From NCBI GenBank assembly GCA_949130485.1, contig OX422199.1, forward strand, positions 5,884,902 through 5,948,901: a DNA stretch of 64,000 nt, read 5' to 3'. Under the pieces are notes generated by a model that was given only the letters and a program-made list of their open reading frames with translations, made no database searches and was not told the DNA's origin. The translations under genes and the position numbers were made by a program. Positions 25,278 through 64,000 of this stretch are shown here, piece by piece; positions within the stretch are counted from its first letter, which is position 1, and each line of letters begins with the position of its first letter. The stretch comes from Agelas oroides. Its lineage: Eukaryota > Porifera > Demospongiae > Agelasida > Agelasidae.

Positions 25278-27256
25278 TTAAAGGATTGAAAAGGATGAAG
25301 CATTAGCAACAACATGTGGAAGCTCATTCCACAGAAAGGGACAATTTACAAAAAAAGGAGTACCTAAAAGTATTTATTCGTGACTGTCTACAAAACAGAG
25401 TGAGGTTATGAGATCTAGTACAAGAGGCTCTGGTAAAGTTTAAGTATTCACTGAAGTCAATACAGTCCAGTTTGTGGATTATTTTATACACCTGGCAACA
25501 AATGAGGAATTGCCTTCTCAGCTGTAATGTGAGCCAGTGAAGCTCATCACAGATCTTCTCGTATGACTTAGACCACTTCATGGATTGTGGGTCCCAGGAT
25601 GCTCCTATCCATCTAGCAGCTCTTCGTTGTACCTTTTCAAGAGTCTCACAATCCTTTTGTTGGTAAGGATTCCACACTGGGGCACAGTACTCTAAGTGTG
25701 GTCTAACAAGAGCAGTATAGGCTCTTTTCTTGGCGTTCTTGGTGCAGCCATACATTGTCCGTCTGAGTAGGTTCAATGCCCGGTTAGCTTTAGCAGTAGC
25801 TTCTGTGATATGTTCACCCCATTTCAACTTAGAGTCTATTCTGACTCCAAGATACTTGAAAGTGTCCACCCACTCCAGTGTAACATTGTTCAGCCTGTAG
25901 GTGTGTGTAGGTGGTTTTCTTTTGTTTGAGATGCAAATGGCCTTACATTTGCTGAGGTTCAAGGCAAGCTGCCACCTTTGGGTCCAGGTGTATAATCTTG
26001 AGAGATCTTCTTGCAAGATAAAGCAATCAGTAGTGTTTGAGATTTGACAATAGATCGCACAGTCATCTGCGAAGAGCTTGGTTGGTGAGGCAAGGTTATC
26101 ACTGATGTCATTAATGTACACTAGGAACAGCAGGGGTCCCAATATAGACCCTTGTGGAACTCCAGAGGTCACTTTGGTCCATGCTGATGGACATCCATTG
26201 CACACAACCCGCTGCTGTCGATCAGTCAGGAAGGCTCTGATCCATCTTTGCAACTCTCCTCTCACTCCAATATGGTCTAATTTTAGGAGCAGTCTTTGAT
26301 GCGGGACTGAGTCGAAAGCCTTGGCAAAGTCTAGGAAGATGATATGTGAACTAGCTCCATGATCAAGGGTCCTAGCCAACTGGTGGATAGTCTCTAAAAG
26401 TTGGGTCTGACAGGAGTGGGCTTGGCGGAAACCATGCTGGAATCGTTTAAGAATTTAACAAGTCTCCTCTGGATAAGACGCTCCATAACTTTGATCACTA
26501 GGCTGGTGAGGCTCACTGGACGGTAGTTCTTTGGGGCATGCTTGTTACCTTTCTTAAATACAGGGGTAATATTGGCCCTAGTCCAGTCACGTGGCAGCCT
26601 TCAAAGGTTAAGGAGGGGCTCAGCAATCAAGGGAGCACCTTCTCTAAGGAGTCTACCAGGGATTTCATCAGGCCCACTAGCTTTGGTGGGATCAATCCTG
26701 CGGAGCTCTTCATACACTTCATTCTCAGTTAGTACCACTTCTTCAATCCCGGCTTCACTCCTGGAAGTATGAAGTTCCTTCCTAAGCAGGATGTGTCTTC
26801 ATGAGCGAACACAGAACTGAAGTATTCACTAAACACCTGAGCATTCTCTGTTCCAGATGACAGCACTTTGCCAGCATGGTGCAAGTCTGGTAATGCAGGA
26901 TGGTGCCCCCTCATATTTTTCAGCCATCTCCAGAATGGTCTTTGATCACAGGCCAGATCCTTGGTGATCTCTTCAAGGTGTTCCTTGTGATCCTTCCTAG
27001 TGAGGTCACGGACAATGTTACTGATGTCTCTATACTTCCTAAAATGTTTGTCTTTCTGTGATCGTTTGACTAATTTGAAAGCACGCCTTTTCTTTCGAAT
27101 CATGTGTAGAGTTTCTGAAAATGTGCTATTCTTATATCATGCAGTTTTTCTGAGTATAGAATTTAGTCTGTGACCCATTTCACCACGATAAATCTCATGT
27201 CTGTTTTTCAATATGAAGTCCATTATGTATATAACTCTTCTATTACCTGTGTCCGG
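25278..27256 (-). mobile_element. Degenerate CR1/L2-type LINE, endonuclease missing
   Basis: Minus-strand reverse transcriptase remnant. From the 5' side it shows a linker (DFILKNRHEIYRGEM, then an in-frame TGA, then MIRKKRRAFKLVKRSQ), RT fingers (KASGPDEIPGRLL, NYRPVSLTSLVIKV), palm (FLDFAKAFDSVPH, SGVPQGSILGPLLF, FADDCAIY) and thumb (HLEYCAPVWNPY). The normal ending WNELPHVV survives only in a shifted frame, because a T7 homopolymer (25350-25356 region) replaces an expected T6. A 21-bp loss near 26600, compared with the second copy, creates another stop. No endonuclease part precedes about 27256, so the element is 5'-truncated. It cannot encode a working protein. Its interior is duplicated at 56267-58069. 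Confidence 0.9.
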
Positions 27257-27951
27257 CAGGTGAATACCGAACTACAGACTTAAGTGTAGTGACTCAATGA
27301 CAGCATCCATGCATTTTAGTTTCAAATATGCTTGCCTAAGTGACTTGTACTACTTACTTCAGCCCAAGTGGAAAACACGAGTTTGCTACTAACCCCCATG
27401 GCTTGTTGTACAACAGTGGTGTACGTTGAAGCAGTAGAGTTACCATGGAGTGCACAAGATCACCACAGATCATCAGATCACCAGGTGGTTTTACCTTCAT
27501 CACCGTAATGATCATCAACCAAAGCCCAGGTTCAGAGGAGCATTTAAAACTGTCAATTCTTTTTTTTTATCTGTGGTTGAGCCACTCATGTGGCAAGATG
27601 AGCATGCACTGCATTACGATTTTGACAAAAACATGTAAGCAGTCGCAGTGATGTGTATGGTATATACACACTTCAGTGGGTTCTATTGTTTACACATGTG
27701 ATCTAGGGGAAATTTATAGGCACTTATTTGGGTAACTTGAATGTATATAGCTACAGAGAATGTCGTCTAAGTGGGATTTAGTGTTTGGAACTGAAGAAGT
27801 CAGAAGAGATCAGGTTTGAAGAAATTAAAGCACAAGTTTGTTACAGCATAGATGTCACTCCTCTACTATCTATGGTTATAGTAAAGATATTCCCACCTAG
27901 TAAATGTGCATGATTATATTTATTATTCCATGTAGTGAAAGGTACAGAGCA
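27257..27951. other. Upstream region of adhesion GPCR copy 1
   Basis: No TATA box or other core promoter could be assigned with confidence. The short frames at 27445-27651 have no signature. Because the whole stretch is identical in the second copy (58070-58764), both genes carry the same 5' control sequence. Confidence 0.4.
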
Positions 27952-30900
27952 ATGAGGAGGTTTTTCACATGCACGCTACTGCTAGTGTTGATTGCACTGG
28001 TCTCAGAATGTTGGTGCACTACTTCTGTATCCGGCATTTCATCGAGGATGAATGTACACAGTCGCGTTCGCCGAGATTCTTCCCGAGTTGCGTGTCAGAT
28101 ACTTCGAGAGAACTTTACTGCTAGCCTACAGTTTGTTAATGAGGAATGCCGAAACGCAGTCCTACCAGTATTCAATCTCTTTGGTGAATTTCAAAATGTA
28201 ACCGTTGCAGAAATGGCAGCAGCGGCAACATGTATTCCTGCGTGCCAGTCCTTGTACGATCTGCAAGTAAGATGCTTAGGACTACTTGTTACTGACAATC
28301 GTACTACCTTTCATTGCGGCCGCAATCAACAGGGACAGGCATGCTATGAAGCATATCAGTTGAACAATGGGAGCCGAGCATTTGATGCATGCAGAAATAA
28401 TCGTGATGCCTGCTCTGTCACTTGTGCTGCAGAATTACTAATCCTCATCGAAGATGTTGGCTGTTGTGTTAGCTCTTTTGCTTACGATCGTCTGCACACT
28501 GACAGTGGTTCTTTTTTTGATAACTGTAGTATTGACATGCCCGATTTCTGCCCGCATAATTTTCGTGTGGTGGACGAGAGTGATTCCAGAAGGGAATGTC
28601 AGGTTCTCCAAGCAAATCTCTTTTCTGGTCTACAGTTTGTTGAGGAAGAATGTCGCAACTCAGTCTTAGCAGCAATAAATTTGCTTACTGACATTCAAAA
28701 TGTAACTGTGCCACGGATGGCTGCAACAGCAATTTGCATTCCTGCATGCCAGTCCTTTTATGACCTACAAATAAGATGTGAAGGAGAGACAGTTACTTAC
28801 AATCGCACTACCTTTTACTGTGGAGAGAATCTCATGGGACAAGCATGCTATGAAGCATTTCAGTTGAACAATGGTAGCCGAGCATTTGCCGCATGCAGAA
28901 ATAATGGTGATAACTGCACGCTGTTTTGTGCTGACGAACTGCGAAACCTTAATTCTGATGTCGGCTGTTGCGTGAATTCATTTGCGTATGGATTCCTGAA
29001 CGCTCCTGATGACTGCATTTATGATACGTGTGGTGTCCCCAGGCCCGGTTTCTGTCCACATCTTTTCAACTCACAGGTTCCTACAACAACTGAGCCCACA
29101 CCTGCGGGTACGTTTACTAGCCGGCTATGTTCTAGCGCTATAGGCGACGGAAGTTTGGGGGGGGGGGGGGGGGGGGGGGGTGCACGTGCAAAGTTTGCTC
29201 AGTGGAGTTATGTAGATCTAGTTGGATCTATTTCTCCCTGCAACTTACATATACTGTTTTTCCACATGAAAACTGTTCCCATATACCTGTAGGAACCGGA
29301 TTCTGTGAAGCAGAGGCCACAGAGTTTCTCCTCTGGCCAAATACTCCTGCTGGCACCACCCACTCTGTCCGCTGCCCCACCACCTTTACCATAATCAACA
29401 GGACCTGTAGCCCGTCTGGTGTGTGGGAGAGTGTGGACCCCTCTCTCTGTACTCCTTTCACCTCCATCAATGTTGTGAGTGTCTATGCATGTGTTCAGTC
29501 TTAGCAGAAATGTTAACTCAGTATGAAGCCATGAATGGACACATTTACAGGATAACATCACACTTGGCAATTTTGATGAAATTCTCATGAATTTAAGCGG
29601 GGCAGTGAGGGGTGCAGCCATGAATGAACAGGAACAAACCACAAGTAACCTTGCCATGGTCACAGCTGCCTTTGCGAGATCTGCACAACTCACTAATGAG
29701 ATGATAGTCATCCAAAATGCAGTAAGTTCACTGCTCTTTTACTTCAACAGTCTGATTGATATCTGTAGCATACTGTGACAATGTTTGAACAATACTTCCT
29801 ACAACTCCTCCTCCCCTTCCCCGCCGCCTTCCTGCCTCCTACCCTAAACAGACAGTTCGGAACCTCGTCAACATATTGGAGGGCTTGCAACAGTGGGATG
29901 TAGATGTTCTGAGAGTAAATTCTTCAAAGTGAGCAAGAAGATTGCTGCAACTAAATACATGATGCCAGCCTATTACATTTCCAATGAAGTACATGCAGAC
30001 ATTGAATTACTACCTTCACTTTCCTGCCCTTGTAGCATTGTACGCTCCTTTGAAGAAATCGTGAGTGTGTTTGCCCAACAGCCGAGAGATGGGGACCGCT
30101 TTTCTGTCATGACAGATAATATTCTCTTTGTTGCTGAACTGGTAAGTTGGATTGCATGTTGACATGGAGGAGCATCTGTTGCAGGCTCACTGTAGCACAC
30201 TCTTTCTATTGTGAGTGCTTAGCTACCTAAGCTTTTGAAGCCCATCTGGCTTGCCATCAATTGGCTACTCTTGTTTGCCTTTATGTACTTTTGGCTATAA
30301 CTCATTCCATATTTCCTCTACTACCACAGGTACCTCAGACTGAACTGACTGCAAATGGCAGAAGCTTCTCAAGCAGTGGTCAGACAGGAAACACCAACAC
30401 CAATGCCCTCAGTGAGGATGAAACTGCAGCTGCCTTCTTACCAGCCTCCCTTTTTGGATCAGTCACAGGTCGTGATGATCTTGGAATCTTTTTTGCTGTT
30501 TACAACATTGGAGTGCTCTTCCCAATTGCAAATGATACACAGATGCATCAGGACACAGATGCATCAGTTACAACTGTCGTGGGTAGTCCAGTTCTTGTAG
30601 CAACTGTAGGGCCAGGGCTAAACTTTACTGGGTTGGAAGAGCCTGTGAGGATCTTGCTCAGGATGAATGAAGTGAGTGCAGGATATGTGTTAGAGGTGGT
30701 TGTGTGTTCTAGCTAGTCTTCACTGGCTATTGGATGGACTCTGCCAAAGCACATCTAAAAGATACTTGCTTGCAACTGTTTAGCATTTTGCATTGCTTTA
30801 ATTTATCCTGTACAGAATGTCACAAGTCGACTGCCTCGATGCGTCTCTTGGGATTTTAATCTTGAACGTATGTACTCCTAGCTAGCGCTGTCACATTGAT

Positions 30901-32670
30901 TTTACATAGCCGCCATGCATGCACAAAACAAGCACCATGCTCACCTATAGCTAATTCTGTGCTATACAGAGTGGACAACAGAGGGATGTCATACAGCGGT
31001 AAATGGAGACATTGTGACGTGCACCTGCAACCACCTCACCAACTTTGCAATCCTTGTGGTTAGCATTTCTATTCATGTGCATCGGTGTGTGCATCTGTTC
31101 AGTAGCTAGTGGTTAAATGTCGGGCAGATTGTTTGTTAGCTGCTAATATCTGTCATAACACTCTGCTCTGCGTATAGAGTATGGTAAGAGCAGAGTATAT
31201 ATCCTTGACTGTATCTGTTATTGATCTGGTATTCAGGACATCTGCTCAAGGTTTCAGGACTGTATGCCATCACCTGTACTTGAAACTGTACTGGAAGCAC
31301 TCACTATTGTTGGGGTGGCCCTTTCCCTGATTGGGATTGTTGCTACTATTGTCACCTTGCTTCTGTTCAAGTGAGTCTCAGTGCGGAGTCATCCAAAACT
31401 GTAGGTCTTACAAGCCAAAAAATTTCTATTATACATACAGGAAGCTGCGTAACAGAGATGCCACCAAGTTTCATATCCAGCTCTGCATTGCTTTGTTCGG
31501 CATGCTGATTGTCTTTGTCTGTGGTATTAACCGAACAAGTGTCTATGGAGGCTGTGTGCTCGTGTCTATTCTGGTCCACTACTTCACACTGTCGTCTGTG
31601 ATGTGGATGGGGGCAGAGGCTGTGCTCATGTTTCAAAAGTTGGTCCTTGTGTTCCGACATACCACTACCAAATTCATTATTGCTGTGTCACTCATCTGCT
31701 GGTGTAAGTGTAGATTAGACTATAACAGCAAGCCACTAGCTTCATTAATTTTTTGAGTCAGCCAGCAGTTTGTTTCCTTCAAAGCTGGAAGTTGAGTCTG
31801 CGAACAAGATTAGCTTCAAATAGTCTGAAGTTGGTAGGTATTGAAATGTGCTAGTGCTTGGTCACCCATGTCACATTTAGTTTTACCACACACTTTACCT
31901 CCCTCTTTCCTCCTTCCTCATCCTACGTAGTGGTACCAATCATTCCTGTGGTGATTCCAGTGGCTGTAGACCTTGCAGATGCAGTCAGCCGAGACCTTGT
32001 TGTACGCAGGCCCACAGCAGAAATCCAAGGATTGTAAGTTGCTGAATGCTAGCACATGACACTTGTATTCAATACCAAGCAATCTTAGTTAATAATAATT
32101 GGTGTTCTCATTCCTCCCTCCAGCTGCTTTGTCTTTGACCCTGCAGTATTCTTTGGTGCCTTCCTGGGCCCCATCTTTGCTATCTTGATCTTCAATGTTG
32201 TCATCTTTGTCATGGTGATTGGGGTCCTCATCACACACACTCGAAACACACTTGAACATACCAAACAACAAATGGACAAGAAAACCGCCATCAGATTGCT
32301 CATCAGTATTGCAGGTGTCATGTTCCTCTTTGGTCTAACGTGGCTCTTTGGTGCACTTACTGTCACTGGATTTGGTGACTCCAGAGCTTCGACTGCCTTC
32401 CAAGTTCTCTTTGTGATCCTCAATGCTTTTCAGGGTTTCTTCATCTTCCTGTTCTTCTGTGTGTTCAGCAAGGATGCACGAGATTCTTGGTTAGAGCTGC
32501 TTCCTTGTGGCTGCAAACGATCCAAGTCATTGCATCCAACACAAGCAGCTAAACATGGTGCCTCTGGAAGCAATGCAAAGGTTAAGATTGCTGAAACAAA
32601 CCTTACTAACCCAACCATCTCCAGCAACAGCGGGCACAACTCAAGCACTGATGACCTCATTGATGCTTAA
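27952..32670 (+). CDS. Adhesion G-protein-coupled receptor (HRM-GAIN-GPS-7TM), copy 1, 12 exons
   Basis: Exons: 27952-29107, 29293-29474, 29551-29721, 29852-29928, 30036-30141, 30330-30671, 30816-30867, 30970-31058, 31237-31370, 31441-31703, 31931-32033 and 32124-32670. GT-AG sites and phases agree throughout and give 1073 residues. The start MRRFFTCTLLL is preferred to an ATG 48 bases upstream because it opens a signal peptide. A furin-like RVRR follows (residues 38-41). Then come two tandem Cys-rich modules (about 48-205 and 216-375) of unknown family, a hormone-receptor (HRM) domain in exon 2 (FCEAEATEF, VRCPTTF, CSPSGVW), a GAIN domain, and a GPS with CVSW, QWTTEGC and CTCNHLT (predicted autoproteolysis between L718 and T719). 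Seven helices follow, with the family motifs HYFTLSSVMWMGAEAV and GLTWLFGAL. The tail is short and Ser/Thr-rich. It is a cell-surface sensor with a tethered agonist; the ligand is unknown. A 24-G run lies in intron 1. Confidence 0.93.
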
Positions 32671-33805
32671 AATCATTCATTACCGCCAAAACTATATACT
32701 TTTTCTTTCCCATAGTCATACACTCAGAAATGTGTGACACTAGTTTTTTCAGTCACGTATAGTTTCATGCATCATTATACAATATTTCAAATTCAGTTAT
32801 AGTTACTGCCTGACCATTTGTAAAAATTCTAGCACTCATGTTGCTTTCTCTATTACCCAGGCAGTGTGTATGTACTCCACTTGTAAATCTTGAAGTTGTG
32901 TGTCAAGTGGGGGAGCACCAACACCGCTGGCACATCGGTGTTCGAAATTGTGTGTCAAGTGGGGGAGGGGACTTGTCAATCAGTATGGAATGCATCAACT
33001 ATACAGTTTAGTAGTTTTCAACATATGAGTAGAAGTGCTAAGTAAACATGAGGGATTAATAATACATTACTGTTCTACAATGGAGATTGTATCATAATAT
33101 AGTCTAGTTGGAGAGATGGCATAATCGCCTCAGAGCCAACCTGAGCTCTAAAGTACCAAACGCATTGGGAAGTATTCTCTGCACTTGTGCAGAAGCTTTT
33201 TGCATTTCCATTTACTGTGCCCTGCCATGTGCCGCACGCCACACCACTAAAGACATAGTCATGCACCTCTTGATTATTGTGTATTAGCATTATGTCCACT
33301 GCATGAGTGACTTTGTATAATACAGCAGAAGATGTGGCTTGCTGATTGTTCCTGCATTTAGAGTAGTAACTACTAATAGCGTAGTTGAAGTACAGCTACT
33401 TTCAGTAAGCTAATATGGTGTTGTACTTTATATAATGTTAGAATATCAGAACAGTACATCCTCCATATGTACTGCATGACAGAAAGGATAGAATTCACCC
33501 CACACCGATAATATGTCACGGTTGTCAAAAGAATCAACAGAATTGTATAGGAAACTAAAAATTACTCAGGTAGACAGTAGAATGAGTACCTATAACTCAC
33601 TTCCGGCGACCGTCGGATGTAGTATTGCATGTACATGTGTATACTAGCAGAATTTATTTGCACTGCTCATAGACAACTTTACAATACAGACTACACACTC
33701 AAATGTGAAACAAACACATAGTAGCAAACGTCTGACCACAAATACAAGTTATATGCTTATAATAATAATAATGAGCACCCAAACTGTTCATATTGGAGCT
33801 TGGAG
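32671..33805. other. 3' flank of the GPCR and intergenic sequence
   Basis: The first roughly 520 bp belong to the duplication. A 20-bp direct repeat TTGTGTGTCAAGTGGGGGAG occurs near 32894 and again about 55 bp later. No gene is recognised before the minisatellite. Confidence 0.4.
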
Positions 33806-34515
33806 TGTGAAGTATGTAAGGTGCCTGCTGTAGTGTGAAGTATGTAAGGTGCCTGCCGTACTGTGAAGTATGTAAGGTGTCTGCTGTACTGTGAAGCGTG
33901 TAAGGTGTCTGCTGTATTGTGAAGCGTGTAAGGTGCCTGCTGTACTGTGAAGCGTGTAAGGTGCCTGCCGTACTGTGAAGCGTGTAAGGTGCCTGCTGTA
34001 CTGTGAAGTATGTAAGGTGCCTGCTGTAGTGTGAAGGATGTAAGGTGCCTGCTGTAGTGTGAAGTATGTAAGGTGCCTGCTGTAGTGTGAAGGATGTAAG
34101 GTGCCTGCTGTACTGTGAAGCGTGTAAGGTGCATGCTGTACTGTGAAGTATGTAAGGTGCCTGCTGTACTGTGAAGCATGTAAGGTGCCTGCTGTAGTGT
34201 GAAGCATGAAAGGTGCCTGCTGTACTGTGAAGTATGTAAGGTGCATGCTGTACTGTGAAGCGTGTAAGGTGGATGCTGTACTGTGAAGCATGTAAGGGTG
34301 CCTGCTGTATTGTGAAGTGTGTAAGGTGCATGCTATACTGTGAAGTGTGTAAGGTGCCTGCTGCATGTATTGTGAAGCGTGTAAGGTGCCTGCTGTACTG
34401 TGAAGCGTGTAAGGTGCATGCTGTACTGTGAAGCGTGTAAGGTGCATGCTGTACTGTGAAGTATGTAAGGTGCCTGCTGTACTGTGAAGTATGTAAGGTG
34501 GATGCTGTAGTGTTA
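33806..34515. repeat. 28-bp minisatellite, 25 copies, in the 3' flank of the beta-helix-like gene
   Basis: Twenty-five counted units with core TGTGAAGTATGTAAGGTGCC and variable bases at a few fixed positions (for example TATG/CGTG/GATG and GTGCC/GTGCA/GTGGA). Unit length is 28, with two or three units of slightly different length. Because 28 is not a multiple of three, all three minus-strand frames stay open and give long Thr/His/Tyr-rich pseudo-proteins, which I do not accept. The array ends about 18 bp from the stop codon of the neighbouring minus-strand gene, so it probably lies in that gene's 3' UTR. Confidence 0.95.
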
Positions 34516-34532
34516 TGAGCTATATAGCTGTA

Positions 34533-37500
34533 TCAGTCAGTAAGAAGTGGCTCACGAAGTTCCACAAATGTCACAGTTGGGGCAACAACAGCAGGGCAAG
34601 CAGGGGTACCTGCAGAACCAAGCAGCTCTCCATTTGTAATTGATATGGCATGTAGCTTCTCTGAATTGTGTTTCTTCCTCTGGTAGTTGATAAAACATCT
34701 TGTCTTCTTCACCCGTTGAAATGAAACTACCAGGAATGATGCAAGAAATACAAGTGCACATGAACCAACCATGGTGTAGCTTGCAACTGCTTGGTAGTGC
34801 TGGAGAAGTGTCTCGTCTGAAAACATGTACTGATTGAAAAGTGTCCATGATGCGAAGATCTCCAAGTTGATGAGATAGAAGCTCTCAAGAACATTCAAAC
34901 CTGTTTTGTTGTAGATGCCACGTACAGTGAAAGGTATAATGGCCAACAGTACAAGTTGAGTAACAAGCAAGTTCACTCCTGGATCTCCAAGCGTATTGAA
35001 TGCAAAACAAGTTAAGAGCACAACTCTAACCAGGAGTAGCACTCCTGTCCAAAACCTGTACCTGTTCTTGTATGGCCCCTGGTAGGCATCCAGCAGTGGT
35101 TTGATTTTATTCACAAACTTTACAACGTAGTATTGTCTCCTTGACTGCAGGAAAGGAGCTGCCAATAAAAGTATAGTCAGTGGAATGATGTATGCAACAA
35201 GAAACAGCAGTGCAGCAAGGAAGAGGGGAATGTGTTTTCCATTCAGGAATCTGACGTTACCATCATAGAGCCACACTGTTAGTGCTTCTCCATCCTCAAC
35301 TTGCACATGGGTGAATGAAAAGGCTGTAATGATTGTACGCTGCAGTTTGGCATATGAGAGGATGAAAAGAGTCGCAAGTACTGGGACAGATGAGTTGCCT
35401 GACAATTTTGCGATGGTGATTGAGTATCTACTCAGGATAATGATTGCCAGTACAATTAACCAGACAAACGTTGGAAAAGCAAACTGCAGCCAGGTCTTGA
35501 CATAGCCATCTAGTCCGTTGTAGAAACAAGTCTCAATTCCTAGGTCAATATTTAGCCAGGCAACAAACACTGAGAGAAAGGATTGTTTCGGAAAGAAGGT
35601 GGCATCATTGGCTTTCACTATATTTGCATAAAAGATCAGTCCATTGATGATTCCTGAGGCGACGGTAAGATCCAATGCATTCAGTATGACCACAAGAACA
35701 ATGCCAGCTACAAGAAACACTACTATGAGACTCAAGAATTTGTGGGAACATTTCAGGCACTGTGAAGATCCAAGAGCAAGGCTGAGACCAGGTTTACAGG
35801 ATCCACAGAGGATACCTGCACGCTGAAAGGCACATTGTGACTCAGCTTTAGTGAGGCTGACATTTTTCGCAAATGGGTTGCAGTAATCAAATGGGCAGAA
35901 GTTATGAATAAGCAGCTTTTGTGATGTATTATCATATGAAATCCAGGCTCTTCTTTCTTTGGTGATTGTTTGTGTTGCTGTATCACAACTGAAGATTCTT
36001 GGCTTACTATGAATGAAAGGAGAACAATCACAGATGTATGGAGAAGTCTTTGTCAGTTTAAAACCAACTTCACACCCCTTTATTTTCAGGGATATGACAA
36101 ATGGCTGGAGGTTTTTTTCTTCAATCATAAACAGTTTCATCTCTGTTTCAGCTGGCACTTGGTATACATTCATTTCATACTTGAGGTTTGTACATGTTTT
36201 GCCGACAGACTGAACAACTTGAGTTTGAGGAAGTGAAACAACAGTGGCATCGCTGGGATACCAATGGACAGTGACTTGTGTAGTTCCATTATACGTGCCA
36301 ACTGCTGCTACAGGAATGCTGAAAGAAGCACCTGGATAAATTGAAACATTATACTCACTTTGATAGTAGATGGGTGTGTTGTTCCGGCATAGACACAGAA
36401 CAGTCGGATTAGATGCTATTTCTGAAAGTGCCCATGGTTGAGGTATTCCAAAGAATTCAGTGAAATTGTCACAATAAAGAGCATAAGAAATGTGGTGTAC
36501 ATTGTTCATATATATGGAGTCCCCACCTTCATCTGCTTTGTTGTCAATCATACTCAGCTTGCTACCCAGTTCCTTTCTAATGACACAATATTGAAGGGAA
36601 ATGCTCATTTCCATTGCACTGGTTTTACCTGCTATGGTTTTAAGTCCTTTCAATTCCTTTGCTGCATCTGTTTGTATGTATAAAGCACCACCACAATGTA
36701 GAGCTCTGTTTCTGTAAAAGTTGACTGTAGCATTTGCCATAAGAAAAATTTTTTGTTTTACTAAAATGCCACCGTTAGTATACTGTGTGGTTGATATTGC
36801 ACCTCCATTAGTGCCACTGTTGTTGTAGAACAAATTATTTCCATAGAAAAACACAAATGTGTTGAATAATTGGAGTGCAGTTAAAGTATTGTTTGCAAAA
36901 GTACAGTGCAGGAAATGTAGCTGTACTCCCACAGAGTAGACAACTGAGTTAATAGGTGCATTTGAGTACGTATAATCCTCAGGAGAATAAAGCATAAAAT
37001 TGTTTGCAAATGAAGAGTTGTACACTATTATTCTATAGGAAGGACCATTACCATCACAGTTGTGGAACTTGACGATTCCGTTTCTCCGAAGAGATCCCAC
37101 AGAAAACTTCTCTTGTATACTATCATATGTTGAGTAAGCAAAACTGGAATTGTGAATTTCAACATGAAATTTTGCAGAAAAACATTTGGAGCCGCCAATC
37201 ATAAAGGAGCTCGTTGTTGCTTGGTAAAAAGCAAAGGAGACATTGATGAGCCGAAGCAGGCCACTGGTCTGATCACTGGGCCCAGTATTTGACAAGTGCA
37301 GTCCTAATCCAGTTTGTTGAAATATTTTGGCTGCTCCATTTTGAATTGTGGTATTAAGAAGAATAATTCTGGAGCTACCATTAAGATGACTACCCAGTTG
37401 AATGTATACATTCGGTCCATTGTTCTGCTCTATTATGCAACTGTCAATGATGATAGCAACAGTATAAGTAGTTTGTGAAAAGCTCATTCTCACACCACCA

Positions 37501-40630: not shown

Positions 40631-40746
40631 AATGGTGCTAGACTGACCTACAAACATCCAATGGTGCTAGACTGACCTACAAACATCCAATGGTGCTAGA
40701 CTGACCTACAAACATCCAATGGTGCTAGACTGACCTACAAACATCC
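40631..40746. repeat. 29-bp tandem repeat, 4 exact copies
   Basis: Four identical copies of a 29-bp unit beginning AATGGTGCTAGACTGACCTA, with no visible divergence. This implies recent expansion. Confidence 0.95.
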
Positions 40747-43975: not shown

Positions 43976-44018
43976 GGACCGGCGAGTCGCTAAAACGGGC
44001 AAATCGTCTATCTTCTGA

Positions 44019-44085: not shown

Positions 44086-44087
<2 letters not shown>

Positions 44088-53800: not shown

Positions 53801-54235
53801 TAGCTTCGTTCCCAGGCCTACCCCGTTTTTTGTTCTTCGGTTTGCGTTCAGTACAATACACGGAGGCGGAAGAGCGCGAAAAACGGGGAAGCACTTGTCA
53901 CGTGAATGACGTCTGGTGGACGCGAGGTGGACGTAGGGGGGGCGGTGCCCAACTACAAATACCGTACTAGACTTCATCATCGAACGCTCCAACTATAGCC
54001 CGGACCCCAGACGTTTACGAGATCGACAATACTTGACTTCACCGGTAAGAAATTCGCTCTATGATTTATTGCACACGAATTTTGTAGTTGGGCACCGCCC
54101 CCCCCCCCCCCCCCCCCCCCCCCTACGTCCACCTCGCGTCCACCAGACGTCATTCACGTGACAAGTGTTCCCAGGCCTTCCCCGTTTTTCGCGCTCTTCC
54201 GCCTCCGTGTATTATACTGAGTGCAAACGGGATCG
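53801..54235. mobile_element. Long foldback element, TAGCCTCGTTCCCAGGCC family, with poly-C
   Basis: Starts TAGCTTCGTTCCCAGGCC. Arms 53838-53959 and 54081-54230 are long, near-perfect complements through CACGGAGGCGGAAGAGCGCG and CACGTGAATGACGTCTGGTG, with a loop of about 120 bases. The right arm has a run of 26 C (54098-54123) where the left arm has only seven G, and the right arm also has an extra GGCCTGGGAA block. Each arm has the adjacent CACGTG and TGACGTC words seen in the copy at 41918. Confidence 0.82.
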
Positions 54236-55790
54236 TCTAAGTTCACATAGCTCCATGAGGTTACGTCATAAAACATCACATGGGAGTTCCCCGTGCCCAC
54301 CGAATAATCGCGATAACCCTCTTTCTACGTAATTTAACTTAACTAAAAATTGTTCTGAACTAGCATGCATTCAGAGAGTGTGCAGCACATCAAGGTAAAA
54401 GAGACCAAGTAAGCATAATACCAGTAAGGTGAAGTAGTCAGGATGAAGGGATATTCGTGGCAGTTGTTGAGGGGGGAAAATCGACTGTACAGGACAGAGC
54501 TAGCCTCAAATATAAGGCTGAGTACAGCATACTTGGTAAAGATGATCATATGAGAGTACAATCAGTCCATGAGGCCTAAATTTGGGCAGTGAAAGCATGT
54601 ACATGATAACTTCTTGTCACACACAAGTTGATCAAGATTTCAAGTGTCTGTGTGCATAATTTGTTAGTACCATGGCAAACCTGCTGTGTACACTTAGCTG
54701 TATGCATTGTGAGCTTGCACTCAAACTATCCATGAAATTTCTACCTTCTCCACTGACTACTTATGTTGCTTACTTGATTCTATTACACTTGACATGCTAA
54801 ATTACTTGATTCTATTACACTTGACATGCTAAATTCTCACTCAATGATACTGTCTGTGTCACTGCATACACAGCCAGCCAGGCCTAGCCTCATACTACAA
54901 GCCCAAGACCGTGTCACACAAGTATACCAATCATTACTTTATCGCACTTGTATGTTTGAAATCACCCTTGTTGCCAAGTTCCCGCCCAGCTTTCTGTCAG
55001 CATGCACTGCAAGTGATGGAAAGCTAAGTAAGGAAGGCCTGGAAATGAGGTTATGCTCAACTTGTGTATGCACTCCCCTCTCTTCACCAACAAAGCGACT
55101 ACACAAATGCACACAAGTTCTAATACCACTATCAGATCACCAAGAAATAGACTCTCCCCCACCTCTGAGCCCTGGAGGAGTACTAGGAAATGGCTTTTGT
55201 TAAAGACCACCTAAAAAATTAAAAATACAGTTATAGGTTTTACCTCTCAGATTGCATCGCAAACAATCTCAGAGCACCTAAAACCCAAATTTTGGTTGAG
55301 GAGCATGCCCCCAGAGCCCCTAGACAATGCTTCAAACAGCTTCCCCCCAAAACTCAAAAGAACCCTCTCCTCTCGAAACATGAGGGGACAGACTGCACAC
55401 AACAGATCTTCCTCTAGCAACCCTCTTGGAGAAAAAGGAGACATCCTATATTTGATGACAAGCATCCTGGGTGTATGTTTCAACTCTCACTTCAAGTGTC
55501 AGGCATCCCATGACCCATTTGCTGCCCCGTGATCTCTATCTGTGCTGTTCTGGATGGGGCTTAACAGATACTTCCATCACTTATTCACTTGATGAAATTG
55601 TCTGAGTCTGTATTTATGAACTCTGTCTGCTGAGAAAAGTTGTGGTAGTGATTGCATGATTAGAAATCAGAAGTCTGGCTGAACTCTTCATTGAATCTTG
55701 CATCCTCGTGCAAATTTATTCAGTGATCAGTCCTTCACGGTGCATAGATCGTATATTTATATTCCTTAGCCTTGTACCCACACTGTAAAA
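54236..55790. other. Intergenic with small repeats
   Basis: A 32-bp unit beginning TACTTGATTCTATTACACTT is duplicated in tandem (54771-54834). Around 54973-55056 lies a degraded copy of the TTCCCAGGCC foldback family (GTTCCCGCCCAGCTTTC mirrored by GGAAAGCT and GGAAGGCCTGG). At 55283-55340 the words GAGGAGCATGCCCCCAGAGC recall the hAT-like element at 21900. No gene is recognised. Confidence 0.5.
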
Positions 55791-56243
55791 ACTTTGGGTT
55801 ACTTCAACCACATTATGGTCATCTCAGTTGCATGCTTGTTGTGTATGTGACACGTTACAAACTTCAAGTGATGCTTCCAATTTGATTGAAAGCTTAAATG
55901 TAGTTGAGACCTTCTCCCTTTTGTTAACTTAGTGACTTCTTTGAGAAAACCTAGCTATTTGGCTACATTCCTGGCATTTCTACCATAACCATGCAACCAA
56001 GGAACTCCTCCAGGGGGGGATGTGTATGATCTAAGAAACACCAAACCTTACCAGAAATGCTGATTTATAGGCTTTCTGCAAGATGATCCTAATTTAAAAA
56101 AAGGGAGAAGCTTCTCAACTACACTTTGATTCAAATTGTAAGCATCCCTTGATGAAGTTCATGGCTAATGCTTCACGTACACAACAGGCATGCAACTGAG
56201 ATGACCAAAATATGGTTGAAGTAACCAAAATGTTTTTACAGTG
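55791..56243. mobile_element. Tc1/mariner-like MITE, copy B, without the nested insertion
   Basis: A 453-bp palindrome with ends CACTGTAAAAACTTTGGG and TTTTTACAGTG, matching copy A (41832-42740) after that copy's 441-bp insertion and 9-bp duplication are removed. Flanking dinucleotides are CA and CA rather than TA, so the target has either mutated or been rearranged. Its right end lies only 23 bp from the left boundary of the segmental duplication. Confidence 0.87.
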
Positions 56244-56266
56244 CAGGCTCTCTCAACACAAGGCTA

Positions 56267-58069
56267 TGGATTATTTTATACACCTGGCAACAAATGAGGA
56301 ATTGCCTTCTCAGCTGTAATGTGAGCCAGTGAAGCTCATCACAGATCTTCTCGTATGACTTAGACCACTTCATGGATTGTGGGTCCCAGGATGCTCCTAT
56401 CCATCTAGCAGCTCTTCGTTGTACCTTTTCAAGAGTCTCACAATCCTTTTGTTGGTAAGGATTCCACACTGGGGCACAGTACTCTAAGTGTGGTCTAACA
56501 AGAGCAGTATAGGCTCTTTTCTTGGCGTTCTTGGTGCAGCCATACATTGTCCGTCTGAGTATGTTCAATGCCTGGTTAGCTTTAGCAGTAGCTTCTGTGA
56601 TATGTTCACCCCATTTCAACTTAGAGTCTATTCTGACTCCAAGATACTTGAAAGTGTCCACCCACTCCAGTGTAACATTGTTCAGCCTGTAGGTGTGTGT
56701 AGGTGGTTTTCTTTTGTTTGAGATGCAAATGGCCTTACATTTGCTGAGGTTCAAGGCAAGCTGCCACCTTTGGGTCCAGGTGTATAATCTTGAGAGATCT
56801 TCTTGCAAGATAAAGCAATCAGTAGTGTTTGAGATTTGACAATAGATCGCACAGTCATCTGCGAAGAGCTTGGTTGGTGAGGCAAGGTTATCACTGATGT
56901 CATTAATGTACACTAGGAACAGCAGGGGTCCCAATATAGACCCTTGTGGAACTCCAGAGGTCACTTTGGTCCATGCTGATGGACATCCATTGCACACAAC
57001 CCGCTGCTGTCGATCAGTCAGGAAGGCTCTGATCCATCTTTGCAACTCTCCTCTCACTCCAATATGGTCTAATTTTAGGAGCAGTCTTTGATGCGGGACT
57101 GAGTCGAAAGCCTTGGCAAAGTCTAGGAAGATGATATGTGAACTAGCTCCATGATCAAGGGTCCTAGCCAACTGGTGGATAGTCTCTAAAAGTTGGGTCT
57201 GACAGGAGTGGGCTTGGCGGAAACCATGCTGGAATCGTTTAAGAATTTAACAAGTCTCCTCTGGATAAGACGCTCCATAACTTTGATCACTAGGCTGGTG
57301 AGGCTCACTGGACGGTAGTTCTTTGGGGCATGCTTGTTACCTTTCTTAAATACAGGGGTAATATTGGCCCTAGTCCAGTCACGTGGCAGCCTTCCTGATT
57401 TCAGACTTGCATTGAAAAGGTTAAGGAGGGGCTCAGCAATCCAGGGAGCACCTTCTCTGAGGAGTCTACCAGGGATTTCATCAGGCCCACTAGCTTTAGT
57501 GGGATCAAACCTGCAGAGCTCTTCATACACTTCATTCTCAGTTAGTACCACTTCTTCAATCCCGGCTTCACTCCTGGAAGTATGAAGTTCCTTCCTAAGC
57601 AGGATGTGTCTTCATGAGCGAACACAGAACTGAAGTATTCACTAAACACCTGAGCATTCTCTGTTCCAGATGACAGCACTTTGCCAGCATGGTGCAAGTC
57701 TGGTAATGCAGGATGGTGCCCCCTCATATTTTTCAGCCATCTCCAGAATGGTCTTTGATCACAGGCCAGATCCTTGGTGATCTCTTCAAGGTGTTCCTTG
57801 TGATCCTTCCTAGTGAGGTCACGGACAATGTTACTGATGTCTCTATACTTCCTAAAATGTTTGTCTTTCTGTGATCGTTTGACTAATTTGAAAGCACGCC
57901 TTTTCTTTCGAATCATGTGTAGAGTTTCTGAAAATGTGCTATTCTTATATCATGCAGTTTTTCTGAGTATAGAATTTAGTCTGTGACCCATTTCACCACG
58001 ATAAATCTCATGTCTGTTTTTCAATATGAAGTCCATTATGTATATAACTCTTCTATTACCTGTGTCCGG
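56267..58069 (-). mobile_element. Degenerate CR1/L2-type LINE, duplicated copy, 3' end cut off
   Basis: Same remnant as 25278-27256. It is missing the C-terminal part after QVYKII, because the duplication begins there. This copy keeps the 21 bp (around 57394-57414) lost in copy 1, so LLNLFNASLKSGRLP is intact here. The frame between fingers and palm is still broken near 57180, and the endonuclease is absent. Confidence 0.9.
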
Positions 58070-58764
58070 CAGGTGAATACCGAACTACAGACTTAAGTGT
58101 AGTGACTCAATGACAGCATCCATGCATTTTAGTTTCAAATATGCTTGCCTAAGTGACTTGTACTACTTACTTCAGCCCAAGTGGAAAACACGAGTTTGCT
58201 ACTAACCCCCATGGCTTGTTGTACAACAGTGGTGTACGTTGAAGCAGTAGAGTTACCATGGAGTGCACAAGATCACCACAGATCATCAGATCACCAGGTG
58301 GTTTTACCTTCATCACCGTAATGATCATCAACCAAAGCCCAGGTTCAGAGGAGCATTTAAAACTGTCAATTCTTTTTTTTTATCTGTGGTTGAGCCACTC
58401 ATGTGGCAAGATGAGCATGCACTGCATTACGATTTTGACAAAAACATGTAAGCAGTCGCAGTGATGTGTATGGTATATACACACTTCAGTGGGTTCTATT
58501 GTTTACACATGTGATCTAGGGGAAATTTATAGGCACTTATTTGGGTAACTTGAATGTATATAGCTACAGAGAATGTCGTCTAAGTGGGATTTAGTGTTTG
58601 GAACTGAAGAAGTCAGAAGAGATCAGGTTTGAAGAAATTAAAGCACAAGTTTGTTACAGCATAGATGTCACTCCTCTACTATCTATGGTTATAGTAAAGA
58701 TATTCCCACCTAGTAAATGTGCATGATTATATTTATTATTCCATGTAGTGAAAGGTACAGAGCA
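58070..58764. other. Upstream region of adhesion GPCR copy 2
   Basis: Identical by eye to 27257-27951. No separate promoter element was assigned. Confidence 0.4.
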
Positions 58765-61700
58765 ATGAGGAGGTTTTTCACATGCACGCTACTGCTAGTG
58801 TTGATTGCACTGGTCTCAGAATGTTGGTGCACTACTTCTGTATCCGGCATTTCATCGAGGATGAATGTACACAGTCGCGTTCGCCGAGATTCTTCCCGAG
58901 TTGCGTGTCAGATACTTCGAGAGAACTTTACTGCTAGCCTACAGTTTGTTAATGAGGAATGCCGAAACGCAGTCCTACCAGTATTCAATCTCTTTGGTGA
59001 ATTTCAAAATGTAACCGTTGCAGAAATGGCAGCAGCGGCAACATGTATTCCTGCGTGCCAGTCCTTGTACGATCTGCAAGTAAGATGCTTAGGACTACTT
59101 GTTACTGACAATCGTACTACCTTTCATTGCGGCCGCAATCAACAGGGACAGGCATGCTATGAAGCATATCAGTTGAACAATGGGAGCCGAGCATTTGATG
59201 CATGCAGAAATAATCGTGATGCCTGCTCTGTCACTTGTGCTGCAGAATTACTAATCCTCATCGAAGATGTTGGCTGTTGTGTTAGCTCTTTTGCTTACGA
59301 TCGTCTGCACACTGACAGTGGTTCTTTTTTTGATAACTGTAGTATTGACATGCCCGATTTCTGCCCGCATAATTTTCGTGTGGTGGACGAGAGTGATTCC
59401 AGAAGGGAATGTCAGGTTCTCCAAGCAAATCTCTTTTCTGGTCTACAGTTTGTTGAGGAAGAATGTCGCAACTCAGTCTTAGCAGCAATAAATTTGCTTA
59501 CTGACATTCAAAATGTAACTGTGCCACGGATGGCTGCAACAGCAATTTGCATTCCTGCATGCCAGTCCTTTTATGACCTACAAATAAGATGTGAAGGAGA
59601 GACAGTTACTTACAATCGCACTACCTTTTACTGTGGAGAGAATCTCATGGGACAAGCATGCTATGAAGCATTTCAGTTGAACAATGGTAGCCGAGCATTT
59701 GCCGCATGCAGAAATAATGGTGATAACTGCACGCTGTTTTGTGCTGACGAACTGCGAAACCTTAATTCTGATGTCGGCTGTTGCGTGAATTCATTTGCGT
59801 ATGGATTCCTGAACGCTCCTGATGACTGCATTTATGATACGTGTGGTGTCCCCAGGCCCGGTTTCTGTCCACATCTTTTCAACTCACAGGTTCCTACAAC
59901 AACTGAGCCCACACCTGCGGGTACGTTTACTAGCCGGCTATGTTCTAGCGCTATAGGCGACGGAAGTTTGGGGGGGGGGGGGGGGGGGGGGGGTGCACGT
60001 GCAAAGTTTGCTCAGTGGAGTTATGTAGATCTAGTTGGATCTATTTCTCCCTGCAACTTACATATACTGTTTTTCCACATGAAAACTGTTCCCATATACC
60101 TGTAGGAACCGGATTCTGTGAAGCAGAGGCCACAGAGTTTCTCCTCTGGCCAAATACTCCTGCTGGCACCACCCACTCTGTCCGCTGCCCCACCACCTTT
60201 ACCATAATCAACAGGACCTGTAGCCCGTCTGGTGTGTGGGAGAGTGTGGACCCCTCTCTCTGTACTCCTTTCACCTCCATCAATGTTGTGAGTGTCTATG
60301 CATGTGTTCAGTCTTAGCAGAAATGTTAACTCAGTATGAAGCCATGAATGGACACATTTACAGGATAACATCACACTTGGCAATTTTGATGAAATTCTCA
60401 TGAATTTAAGCGGGGCAGTGAGGGGTGCAGCCATGAATGAACAGGAACAAACCACAAGTAACCTTGCCATGGTCACAGCTGCCTTTGCGAGATCTGCACA
60501 ACTCACTAATGAGATGATAGTCATCCAAAATGCAGTAAGTTCACTGCTCTTTTACTTCAACAGTCTGATTGATATCTGTAGCATACTGTGACAATGTTTG
60601 AACAATACTTCCTACAACTCCTCCTCCCCTTCCCCGCCGCCTTCCTGCCTCCTACCCTAAACAGACAGTTCGGAACCTCGTCAACATATTGGAGGGCTTG
60701 CAACAGTGGGATGTAGATGTTCTGAGAGTAAATTCTTCAAAGTGAGCAAGAAGATTGCTGCAACTAAATACATGATGCCAGCCTATTACATTTCCAATGA
60801 AGTACATGCAGACATTGAATTACTACCTTCACTTTCCTGCCCTTGTAGCATTGTACGCTCCTTTGAAGAAATCGTGAGTGTGTTTGCCCAACAGCCGAGA
60901 GATGGGGACCGCTTTTCTGTCATGACAGATAATATTCTCTTTGTTGCTGAACTGGTAAGTTGGATTGCATGTTGACATGGAGGAGCATCTGTTGCAGGCT
61001 CACTGTAGCACACTCTTTCTATTGTGAGTGCTTAGCTACCTAAGCTTTTGAAGCCCATCTGGCTTGCCATCAATTGGCTACTCTTGTTTGCCTTTATGTA
61101 CTTTTGGCTATAACTCATTCCATATTTCCTCTACTACCACAGGTACCTCAGACTGAACTGACTGCAAATGGCAGAAGCTTCTCAAGCAGTGGTCAGACAG
61201 GAAACACCAACACCAATGCCCTCAGTGAGGATGAAACTGCAGCTGCCTTCTTACCAGCCTCCCTTTTTGGATCAGTCACAGGTCGTGATGATCTTGGAAT
61301 CTTTTTTGCTGTTTACAACATTGGAGTGCTCTTCCCAATTGCAAATGATACACAGATGCATCAGGACACAGATGCATCAGTTACAACTGTCGTGGGTAGT
61401 CCAGTTCTTGTAGCAACTGTAGGGCCAGGGCTAAACTTTACTGGGTTGGAAGAGCCTGTGAGGATCTTGCTCAGGATGAATGAAGTGAGTGCAGGATATG
61501 TGTTAGAGGTGGTTGTGTGTTCTAGCTAGTCTTCACTGGCTATTGGATGGACTCTGCCAAAGCACATCTAAAAGATACTTGCTTGCAACTGTTTAGCATT
61601 TTGCATTGCTTTAATTTATCCTGTACAGAATGTCACAAGTCGACTGCCTCGATGCGTCTCTTGGGATTTTAATCTTGAACGTATGTACTCCTAGCTAGCG

Positions 61701-63482
61701 CTGTCACATTGATTTTACATAGCCGCCATGCATGCACAAAACAAGCACCATGCTCACCTATAGCTAATTCTGTGCTATACAGAGTGGACAACAGAGGGAT
61801 GTCAGACAGCGGTAAATGGAGACATTGTGACGTGCACCTGCAACCACCTCACCAACTTTGCAATCCTTGTGGTTAGCATTTCTATTCATGTGCATCGGTG
61901 TGTGCATCTGTTCAGTAGCTAGTGGTTAAATGTCGGGCAGATTGTTTGTTAGCTGCTAATATCTGTCATAACACTCTGCTCTGCGTATAGAGTATGGTAA
62001 GAGCAGAGTATATATCCTTGACTGTATCTGTTATTGATCTGGTATTCAGGACATCTGCTCAAGGTTTCAGGACTGTATGCCATCACCTGTACTTGAAACT
62101 GTACTGGAAGCACTCACTATTGTTGGGGTGGCCCTTTCCCTGATTGGGATTGTTGCTACTATTGTCACCTTGCTTCTGTTCAAGTGAGTCTCAGTGCGGA
62201 GTCATCCAAAACTGTAGGTCTTACAAGCCAAAAAATTTCTATTATACATACAGGAAGCTGCGTAACAGAGATGCCACCAAGTTTCATATCCAGCTCTGCA
62301 TTGCTTTGTTCGGCATGCTGATTGTCTTTGTCTGTGGTATTAACCGAACAAGTGTCTATGGAGGCTGTGTGCTCGTGTCTATTCTGGTCCACTACTTCAC
62401 ACTGTCGTCTGTGATGTGGATGGGGGCAGAGGCTGTGCTCATGTTTCAAAAGTTGGTCCTTGTGTTCCGACATACCACTACCAAATTCATTATTGCTGTG
62501 TCACTCATCTGCTGGTGTAAGTGTAGATTAGACTATAACAGCAAGCCACTAGCTTCATTAATTTTTTGAGTCAGCCAGCAGTTTGTTTCCTTCAAAGCTG
62601 GAAGTTGAGTCTGCGAACAAGATTAGCTTCAAATAGTCTGAAGTTGGTAGGTATTGAAATGTGCTAGTGCTTGGTCACCCTGTCACATTTAGTTTTACCA
62701 CACACTTTACCTCCCTCTTTCCTCCTTCCTCATCCTACGTAGTGGTACCAATCATTCCTGTGGTGATTCCAGTGGCTGTAGACCTTGCAGATGCAGTCAG
62801 CCGAGACCTTGTTGTACGCAGGCCCACAGCAGAAATCCAAGGATTGTAAGTTGCTGAATGCTAGCACATGACACTTGTATTCAATACCAAGCAATCTTAG
62901 TTAATAATAATTGGTGTTCTCATTCCTCCCTCCAGCTGCTTTGTCTTTGACCCTGCAGTATTCTTTGGTGCCTTCCTGGGCCCCATCTTTGCTATCTTGA
63001 TCTTCAATGTTGTCATCTTTGTCATGGTGATTGGGGTCCTCATCACACACACTCGAAACACACTTGAACATACCAAACAACAAATGGACAAGAAAACCGC
63101 CATCAGATTGCTCATCAGTATTGCAGGTGTCATGTTCCTCTTTGGTCTAACGTGGCTCTTTGGTGCACTTACTGTCACTGGATTTGGTGACTCCAGAGCT
63201 TCGACTGCCTTCCAAGTTCTCTTTGTGATCCTCAATGCTTTTCAGGGTTTCTTCATCTTCCTGTTCTTCTGTGTGTTCAGCAAGGATGCACGAGATTCTT
63301 GGTTAGAGCTGCTTCCTTGTGGCTGCAAACGATCCAAGTCATTGCATCCAACACAAGCAGCTAAACATGGTGCCTCTGGAAGCAATGCAAAGGTTAAGAT
63401 TGCTGAAACAAACCTTACTAACCCAACCATCTCCAGCAACAGCGGGCACAACTCAAGCACTGATGACCTCATTGATGCTTAA
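58765..63482 (+). CDS. Adhesion G-protein-coupled receptor, copy 2, 12 exons
   Basis: Exons: 58765-59920, 60106-60287, 60364-60534, 60665-60741, 60849-60954, 61143-61484, 61629-61680, 61783-61871, 62050-62183, 62254-62516, 62743-62845 and 62936-63482. Every splice site and the reading frame of the first copy are preserved, giving the same 1073-residue architecture: signal peptide, RVRR, two Cys-rich modules, HRM, GAIN, GPS, seven helices. The one coding difference I found is CAT to CAG at 61803-61805, which changes His703 to Gln inside the GPS, between its conserved TEGC and VTCTC. The catalytic HLT is unchanged. A 1-bp loss near 62680 lies in intron 10 and does not affect coding. Both copies therefore look functional, unless one is an assembly artefact. 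Confidence 0.92.
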
Positions 63483-64000
63483 AATCATTCATTACCGCCA
63501 AAACTATATACTTTTTCTTTCCCATAGTCATACACTCAGAAATGTGTGACACTAGTTTTTTCAGTCACGTATAGTTTCATGCATCATTATACAATATTTC
63601 AAATTCAGTTATAGTTACTGCCTGACCATTTGTAAAAATTCTAGCACTCATGTTGCTTTCTCTATTACCCAGGCAGTGTGTATGTACTCCACTTGTAAAT
63701 CTTGAAGTTGTGTGTCAAGTGGGGGAGCACCAACACCGCTGGCACATCGGTGTTCGAAATTGTGTGTCAAGTGGGGGAGGGGACTTGTCAATCAGTATGG
63801 AATGCATCAACTATACAGTTTAGTAGTTTTCAACATATGAGTAGAAGTGCTAAGTAAACATGAGGGATTAATAATACATTACTGTTCTACATTGGAGAGT
63901 CTGTCACAATATAGTCTAGTTGGAGAGATGGCATAATAGCCTCAGAGCCAACCTGAGCTGCTCTAAAGTACCAAACGTATTGGGAAGTATTCTCTGCACT
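63483..64000. other. 3' flank of GPCR copy 2 to the window edge
   Basis: Matches 32671-33190. It is nearly identical at first, then from about 63890 onward carries clustered differences (several substitutions and a 3-bp insertion in about 110 bp). No gene. Confidence 0.6.

What the first reader, a model, noticed from the sequence alone, without database searches (positions are those of the whole stretch)
25475..64000. Near-identical duplication of an entire adhesion GPCR locus 30.8 kb apart
At least 7.7 kb (LINE fragment, promoter region, all 12 exons and introns, 3' flank) is repeated in direct orientation with about 23 kb of unrelated sequence between. Splice sites and frames are intact in both copies. 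It is either a very recent segmental duplication that doubled a receptor gene, or two haplotypes wrongly placed in tandem by the assembler.
Basis: seen in the sequence. Interest (0 to 1): 0.72.

Follow-up and report, generated by a model that had tools for sequence, protein, structure and literature searches.

The report
Receptor gene recently copied next door
A whole adhesion-type receptor gene appears twice, 30.8 kb apart and almost letter for letter, apparently because it was copied very recently into a larger and older duplicated block; this is a known way for gene families to grow and stay alike, and raw reads are still needed to exclude an assembly error.

Summary
The repeat is in the sequence: 25475-33185 matches 56267-64000 at 99.5%. 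Both copies hold an intact 12-exon adhesion GPCR gene (1073 aa) differing at one residue, H703Q. The window end cuts copy 2, and the wider contig changes the picture. Homology runs on to 42827 / 74181, with a second intact gene, but with a sharp step: the core 26703-33079 has 1 substitution in 6376 aligned bases, the flank right of 33080 has 218 in 6260. On the left, near-identity runs flush to a non-homologous breakpoint inside a LINE that continues in copy 1 and stops in copy 2. So this is not one recent duplication but recent copying of a whole gene, probably from copy 1 to copy 2, onto an older tandem duplication. Two other near-identical receptor pairs in this genome show a similar anatomy. 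A two-haplotype assembly error is less likely (no gap in 144 kb; four gene-like ORFs in one block only) but not excluded: the near-identical lengths, 7.6-10 kb, resemble long reads. Known kind of event, moderately interesting.

The parts
25475..26702 (-). LINE (reverse transcriptase) fragment, copy 1; the element continues left past 25475
   Evidence: RVT_1 at 25327-26454; 25087-25600 is 97% identical to a LINE on C2; 7 substitutions and a 21-bp indel against copy 2
26703..33079 (+). near-identical core, copy 1
   Evidence: 1 substitution in 6376 aligned bases and one 1-base indel
27952..32670 (+). adhesion GPCR gene G1: 12 exons, 1073 aa; HRM, GPS, 7tm_2
   Evidence: gene model with GT-AG at 11 of 11 introns; Pfam; PDB relatives ADGRG6, ADGRG2, ADGRL3
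33080..42827 (+). older, diverged part of the duplicated block, copy 1 (matches 63892-74181)
   Evidence: 218 differences in 6260, including a 500-bp patch with 46; end of homology
34533..38126 (-). gene B1, one long open frame of 1197 aa; partner B2 at 65.6-69.2 kb is also open
   Evidence: 94.5% aa identity, dN 0.025, dS 0.068; no Pfam match at E 0.01
41830..42744 (.). mobile-element insertion in copy 1, absent from copy 2
   Evidence: homology resumes at 42745-42827 / 74101-74181, 95%
46600..51576 (-). gene T1 (two long open frames), with further copies at 93.9 kb and 103 kb
   Evidence: 94 differences in 3812 against the copy at 93.9 kb
53840..56246 (.). stack of mobile elements next to the breakpoint; the last one (55780-56246) is self-complementary
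56266..56267 (.). non-homologous left edge of copy 2 (corresponds to 25474/25475)
   Evidence: sequence comparison; no difference in the adjacent 295 bp
56267..57515 (-). truncated LINE fragment, copy 2
57516..63891 (+). near-identical core, copy 2
58765..63482 (+). adhesion GPCR gene G2: 12 exons, 1073 aa, H703Q relative to G1
63892..64000 (+). start of the diverged flank of copy 2, which continues beyond the window to 74181

Best explanation
The locus is a real tandem duplication with two layers. Layer one (shown as sequence; age inferred): a block holding gene B, and probably gene T, was duplicated some time ago and has diverged by about 2.5-3.5%. Layer two (shown as a sharp step in divergence; mechanism inferred): much more recently a 7.6-kb stretch of copy 1, with the whole adhesion GPCR gene, its upstream sequence and part of a LINE, was copied to the place upstream of B2. 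The mechanism I think most likely is repair of a break next to the element stack at 53.8-56.2 kb: the B2-side end used its homology to the B1 side as a primer and copied leftwards through the gene into the LINE, and the new end was joined without homology to the other side. This accounts for one homologous edge (33080 / 63892), one non-homologous edge (25475 / 56267), exons and introns equally alike, and the direction copy 1 to copy 2. The result is a second complete receptor gene with the same upstream sequence. That G2 is expressed or adds anything is inference only.
For: Step in divergence: 1 in 6376 against 218 in 6260, about 222 expected in the core at the flank's rate. The core is about half non-coding (3222 coding, 3155 not) and its one substitution is coding, so selection does not explain it. 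A 24-G run in intron 1 has the same length in both. No difference in the 295 bp next to the left edge. In copy 1 the LINE runs across the edge, 25087-25600 being 97% identical to a C2 LINE; in copy 2 it stops there. Gene B is open in both copies, dN 0.025, dS 0.068. Two other near-identical receptor pairs show one abrupt edge, a near-identical stretch and a diverged homologous flank. Whole genes copied by interlocus conversion, mean tract 6.26 kb, are reported in human duplications (PMC10172114, passages).
Against: No reads were available, so copy number is unproved. The near-identical lengths (7.6, 10.0, 8.8 kb) resemble long reads. The left part is less alike (7 in 1228) than the core; four of those seven look like a patch from another LINE, but even without them the two rates differ. 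The abrupt edge of copy 2 could also be a separate deletion or junction of another date. Repair-mediated duplications described in vertebrates are much shorter (proximal mean 162 bp, maximum 619 bp; PMC2671141, passages). The Ephydatia muelleri paper took variable introns as its sign of true duplication (PMC7385117, passages), a sign this core does not show.
Confidence: 0.55

Rival explanations
1. Ordinary interlocus gene conversion: the older duplication already held a diverged G2, and a long conversion tract overwrote it, running to the end of homology in the LINE.
For: Homologous diverged flank on the right with a sharp change at 33080; long conversion tracts are known in human duplications (PMC10172114, passages).
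Against: No diverged remnant is left at the left edge: 0 differences in the first 295 bp, where about 10 are expected at 3.5%. The other two pairs are also alike up to their abrupt edge.
Confidence: 0.2
2. Assembly error: two haplotypes were placed in tandem, the near-identical part being a stretch in which the haplotypes agree and the flank a stretch in which they differ.
For: Near-identical lengths of 7.6, 10.0 and 8.8 kb resemble long reads, and a contig that starts with a read in a homozygous stretch would give one abrupt and one homologous edge (inference). B and T follow in the same order in both blocks. [quoted passage not shown] In the Spongilla lacustris assembly 160 haplotypic duplications had to be removed by hand (PMC12141999, passages).
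Against: No N in the 144 kb, nor at any of the six abrupt edges of the three pairs, while false duplications on one scaffold are most often separated by a gap. About 18.5 kb with four gene-like ORFs, three with clear Pfam domains and one weak, occurs in one block only. Synonymous divergence of gene B, 0.068, would be very high for alleles (general knowledge). A stretch at 43.8-46.3 kb matches 98.5-100.1 kb out of order at 78-89%, but parts of it also match 22.7-23.3 kb and may be mobile repeats, so this is weak. 0 of 17 proteasome-family matches form an equal-score pair.
Confidence: 0.18
3. A single recent tandem duplication of the whole block whose right-hand part has simply changed faster.
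For: Tandem repeats at 33.6-34.5 and 39.6-41 kb do differ in length between copies.
Against: The flank is at 3.5% with those repeats left out, gene B has dS 0.068 with open frames, and introns and intergenic sequence of the core are unchanged.
Confidence: 0.03

Closest known systems
Whole-gene interlocus gene conversion in human segmental duplications (PMC10172114; passages read)
   Same: Multi-kb tracts (mean 6.26 kb) that copy complete genes between diverged duplicates, leaving a sharp step in divergence
   Different: Here one edge is non-homologous and flush with near-identity; no population data were available
[quoted passage not shown] passages read)
   Same: Synthesis from a nearby template, non-homologous joining
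   Different: Those are mostly far shorter (proximal maximum 619 bp) and need no homology at one edge; here about 7.6 kb with a homologous right edge
Tandem and segmental gene duplication in the freshwater sponge Ephydatia muelleri (PMC7385117; passages read)
   Same: Clustered receptor-type genes with the same exon structure, several ages of copies
   Different: There introns and intergenic sequence are described as highly variable between copies; here they are nearly identical. That this genome is a freshwater sponge is inference
HRM-bearing adhesion GPCRs of the sponge Amphimedon queenslandica (PMC4302439; passages read)
   Same: Adhesion GPCRs with HRM; at least 8 of 40 there have HRM and 28 of 40 have GPS
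   Different: This protein has two Cys-rich repeats near its N-terminus without a Pfam match; no direct sequence comparison was possible

Membership tests
Adhesion GPCR | class B seven-transmembrane domain (7tm_2) | tested here: met
   Pfam 7tm_2, residues 743-999, E 2.8e-34
Adhesion GPCR | GPS motif before the first transmembrane helix | tested here: met
   Pfam GPS, residues 685-724, E 3.6e-13
Adhesion GPCR | GAIN domain fold | tested here: inconclusive
   sequence matches span the GAIN region of solved ADGRG6 (398-728 to 6v55) and ADGRL3 chains; no Pfam GAIN match, and structure prediction was not accepted
Adhesion GPCR | autoproteolysis at the GPS | not testable with these tools
   HLT is present in the translation; cleavage not assayed
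Interlocus gene conversion tract | near-identical tract with a sharp boundary to diverged homologous flank on both sides | tested here: not met
   met on the right (33080), not on the left, where near-identity runs to a non-homologous edge
Interlocus gene conversion tract | coding and non-coding sequence equally alike | tested here: met
   1 substitution in 6376, with 3155 of 6377 positions non-coding
False haplotype (heterotype) duplication | gap between the copies | tested here: not met
   0 N in 144,000 bases; some published cases lack a gap
False haplotype (heterotype) duplication | half read depth, discordant reads | not testable with these tools
   no reads available
False haplotype (heterotype) duplication | the two blocks are colinear alleles with the same genes | tested here: inconclusive
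   G, B and T in the same order, but about 18.5 kb with four gene-like ORFs in one block only
Single recent tandem duplication | uniform divergence along the block | tested here: not met
   0.016% in the core against 3.5% in the flank

The most novel reading that the evidence does not exclude
In this genome adhesion GPCR genes are repeatedly copied whole into older duplicated blocks by homology-primed, end-joining-finished repair, leaving 7.6-10 kb near-identical inserts with one abrupt edge: a recurring route that both adds receptors and keeps neighbouring ones alike.
Probability: 0.25. Interest if true: 0.55.

Novelty: new member of a known kind. Interest (0 to 1): 0.35.

Why it matters
It corrects the size and age of the event: dated from the 99.5% stretch alone the duplication would look young, while the block is older and only the receptor part was renewed. 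If real, it catches a receptor family in the act of copying a whole gene. If an artefact, up to three receptor genes of this assembly are counted twice. Either outcome bears on counts of receptor expansion, and long reads across two junctions would decide it.

Tried and rejected
A single uniform recent duplication was rejected because of the step in divergence at 33080. Copy 2 as an independent LINE insertion was rejected because its upstream gene and flank are shared too and it lacks the end that continues in copy 1. That the cluster of LINE differences shows an old left flank was rejected because at four of the five clustered sites the copies carry alleles of two different other LINEs; the comparison element was wrongly oriented or cut and was redone. 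First gene models had a wrong donor site and a wrong offset for copy 2; corrected. A stretch at 43.8-46.3 kb that matches out of order was first taken as evidence against alleles; it partly matches repeats at 22.7-23.3 kb, so it counts little. A pattern search meant to find the mitochondrial genome gave nothing useful. The species was not identified: contig sizes resemble Spongilla lacustris, but total length and several sizes differ. A control with the large rhodopsin family PF00001 did not complete. Structure prediction of the N-terminal repeat was not accepted. A search for papers on adhesion GPCR tandem copies in spongillids listed 5 papers, judged from the listing alone; none is on that subject by title.
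Full report
WHAT WAS CHECKED. The window lies at C17:5884902-5948901 of an unnamed 259-Mb genome in 141 contigs. A self-comparison finds one long direct repeat, 25475-33185 to 56267-64000, 99.48%. Genome-wide, a 7-kb query from it has two full-length matches, these two; the tool scored 40 of 959 candidates. Because the window end cuts the second copy, I added 20 kb on the left and 60 kb on the right. This 144-kb stretch holds no N.

THE GENE. Copy 1 is a 12-exon gene, 27952-32670, with 11 of 11 introns GT-AG and an open frame of 1073 residues; copy 2 is the same with one different residue, H703Q. Pfam finds HRM (E 2.4e-8), GPS (3.6e-13) and 7tm_2 (2.8e-34). The best three named relatives among solved structures, by sequence, are ADGRG6, ADGRG2 and ADGRL3. 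So it is an adhesion GPCR. Exon 1 also encodes two Cys-rich repeats, 61% identical to each other, in a part of the protein where Pfam finds nothing.

TWO LAYERS OF AGE. Copy 1 and copy 2 differ at 7 of 1228 positions in the LINE part, at 1 of 6376 in 26703-33079, and at 218 of 6260 (3.5%) in 33080-42827 with the tandem-repeat stretches and an inserted element left out. The 218 include a 500-bp patch with 46. At the flank's rate about 222 differences would be expected in the core. The core has 3222 coding and 3155 non-coding positions, and its one substitution is coding, so selection on the protein does not explain it. A run of 24 G in intron 1, a kind of sequence that usually changes length fast (general knowledge), is equal in both. 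The flank holds gene B, open in both copies, with dN 0.025 and dS 0.068. Beyond it, gene T recurs at 93.9 kb with 94 differences in 3812 and at 103 kb at 89-94%. One recent duplication does not give these numbers.

THE EDGES. On the right the step at 33080 / 63892 lies inside homologous sequence. On the left the homology ends abruptly at 25475 / 56267, with no difference in the adjacent 295 bp. In copy 1 the LINE runs on across 25475: 25087-25600 is 97% identical to a LINE on C2. In copy 2 it stops, 20 bp from a self-complementary mobile element that closes a 2.4-kb stack of such elements. The natural reading is that copy 1 is the source, although a later deletion in copy 2 would look the same. 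Five LINE differences cluster at 26629-26702. At four of them (26646, 26685, 26696, 26702) copy 1 has the allele of the C2 LINE and copy 2 that of a C17 LINE, so they look like a small patch from another element; 26629 and a 21-bp deletion are derived in copy 1, 25770 and 25781 in copy 2.

SIMILAR ANATOMY ELSEWHERE. Among 79 matches to the last-exon protein, three pairs agree in score, identity and span: the present one, one on C7 (81.7 kb apart) and one on C17 (95.3 kb apart). Pairs that differ in that exon would be missed; for example the nearly equal pair at C1:8.21 and 8.23 Mb was not tested. The C7 pair has 0 differences over 2638236-2645994, then 3 substitutions and one indel up to an abrupt edge at 2648200, and on the other side a homologous flank that is 1-2% diverged near the core and up to 11% further out. 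The second C17 pair has 16 substitutions in 8.8 kb from an abrupt edge, then 161 in 2929, or 5.5%. So 3 of 3 pairs show an abrupt edge, a near-identical stretch of 7.6-10 kb and a diverged homologous flank. Beyond the abrupt edges only about 0.3 kb was fetched for these two other pairs. As a control, 17 matches of the proteasome family show no pair of equal score; the control with a large receptor family did not complete in four tries, so I cannot say that adhesion GPCRs are special.

MECHANISM. Shown: two levels of divergence, one homologous and one non-homologous edge, and a continuing LINE at the copy 1 edge. Inferred: a break near the element stack, strand invasion from the B2 side into the B1 side, copying leftwards through the gene, and end joining. 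Plain gene conversion of an older G2 is the main biological rival. Precedents: whole genes copied by interlocus gene conversion in human duplications, mean tract 6.26 kb (PMC10172114, passages); repair-mediated duplication, which however is much shorter there (PMC2671141, passages). In Ephydatia muelleri tandem and segmental duplication are described as widespread, with variable introns between copies (PMC7385117, passages); the present core lacks such variation.

COULD IT BE AN ARTEFACT? The lengths 7.6, 10.0 and 8.8 kb resemble long reads, and a contig beginning with a read in a stretch where the haplotypes agree would also give one abrupt and one homologous edge. This is the strongest argument against my reading. 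[quoted passage not shown] Against the artefact: none of the six abrupt edges has a gap, and the 220,346 letters of loci fetched, some of them overlapping, contain no N (some letters of the later read N, nature unknown). About 18.5 kb of copy 2 has no counterpart in copy 1 and carries Kelch, ZU5 and Death-domain ORFs and a weak NAB-like one. A DNA search with 7.4 kb of it found no second copy at allele-like identity over its length, only repeats and partial matches, one at 83% over the ZU5 ORF. The C7 pair has no extended homology to the left of its block in about 10-12 kb. A further stretch (43.8-46.3 kb) matches out of order, but it may be mobile repeats and counts little. I give the artefact 0.18. 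Only reads can settle it.

ORGANISM. Not identified. Contig sizes resemble the 23 chromosomes of Spongilla lacustris (largest 31.14 Mb, 248.7 Mb in all; PMC12141999, passages) but do not match. HRM-bearing adhesion GPCRs are known from a sponge (PMC4302439, passages). 'A freshwater sponge' is therefore inference.

VERDICT. It is a new member of a known kind: a whole-gene copying tract on an older tandem duplication. Interest is moderate, raised by its recurrence in one receptor family and lowered by the missing read evidence.

Noticed in passing
28084-28569 and 28588-29076: Two Cys-rich repeats, 61% identical, near the N-terminus of the receptor, in a region without a Pfam match. A profile of the two gives weak hits to lysozyme C in the PDB (best E 2e-4), probably chance but untested.
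   Followed up: partly
C7:2635332-2648200 with 2717071-2729961; C17:4903801-4912584 with a partner 95.3 kb away: Two further near-identical adhesion GPCR pairs with one abrupt edge and a diverged homologous flank.
   Followed up: partly
36475-36974: A 500-bp patch inside gene B with 46 differences between the copies, several times more than its neighbours; perhaps a separate exchange with another gene B relative.
   Followed up: no
34533-38126: Gene B: one uninterrupted frame of 1197 aa with a signal-like start and a hydrophobic C-terminal half (by eye), no Pfam match at E 0.01; diverged relatives on many contigs.
   Followed up: partly
33600-34560; beyond the window 71503-73011: Minisatellite arrays of roughly 56-60 bp units; the second is much longer in copy 2 than in copy 1.
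   Followed up: no
26602-26702: Short patch in which the two LINE copies carry alleles of two different LINEs from elsewhere in the genome, suggestive of small exchanges between dispersed elements.
   Followed up: partly
15128-16157 (minus): Open frames with immunoglobulin domains, probably exons of an Ig-family surface protein.
   Followed up: no
1-2783 (plus), starting just left of the window: A 972-aa open frame that looks like a non-LTR retroelement, apparently little damaged (by eye only).
   Followed up: no
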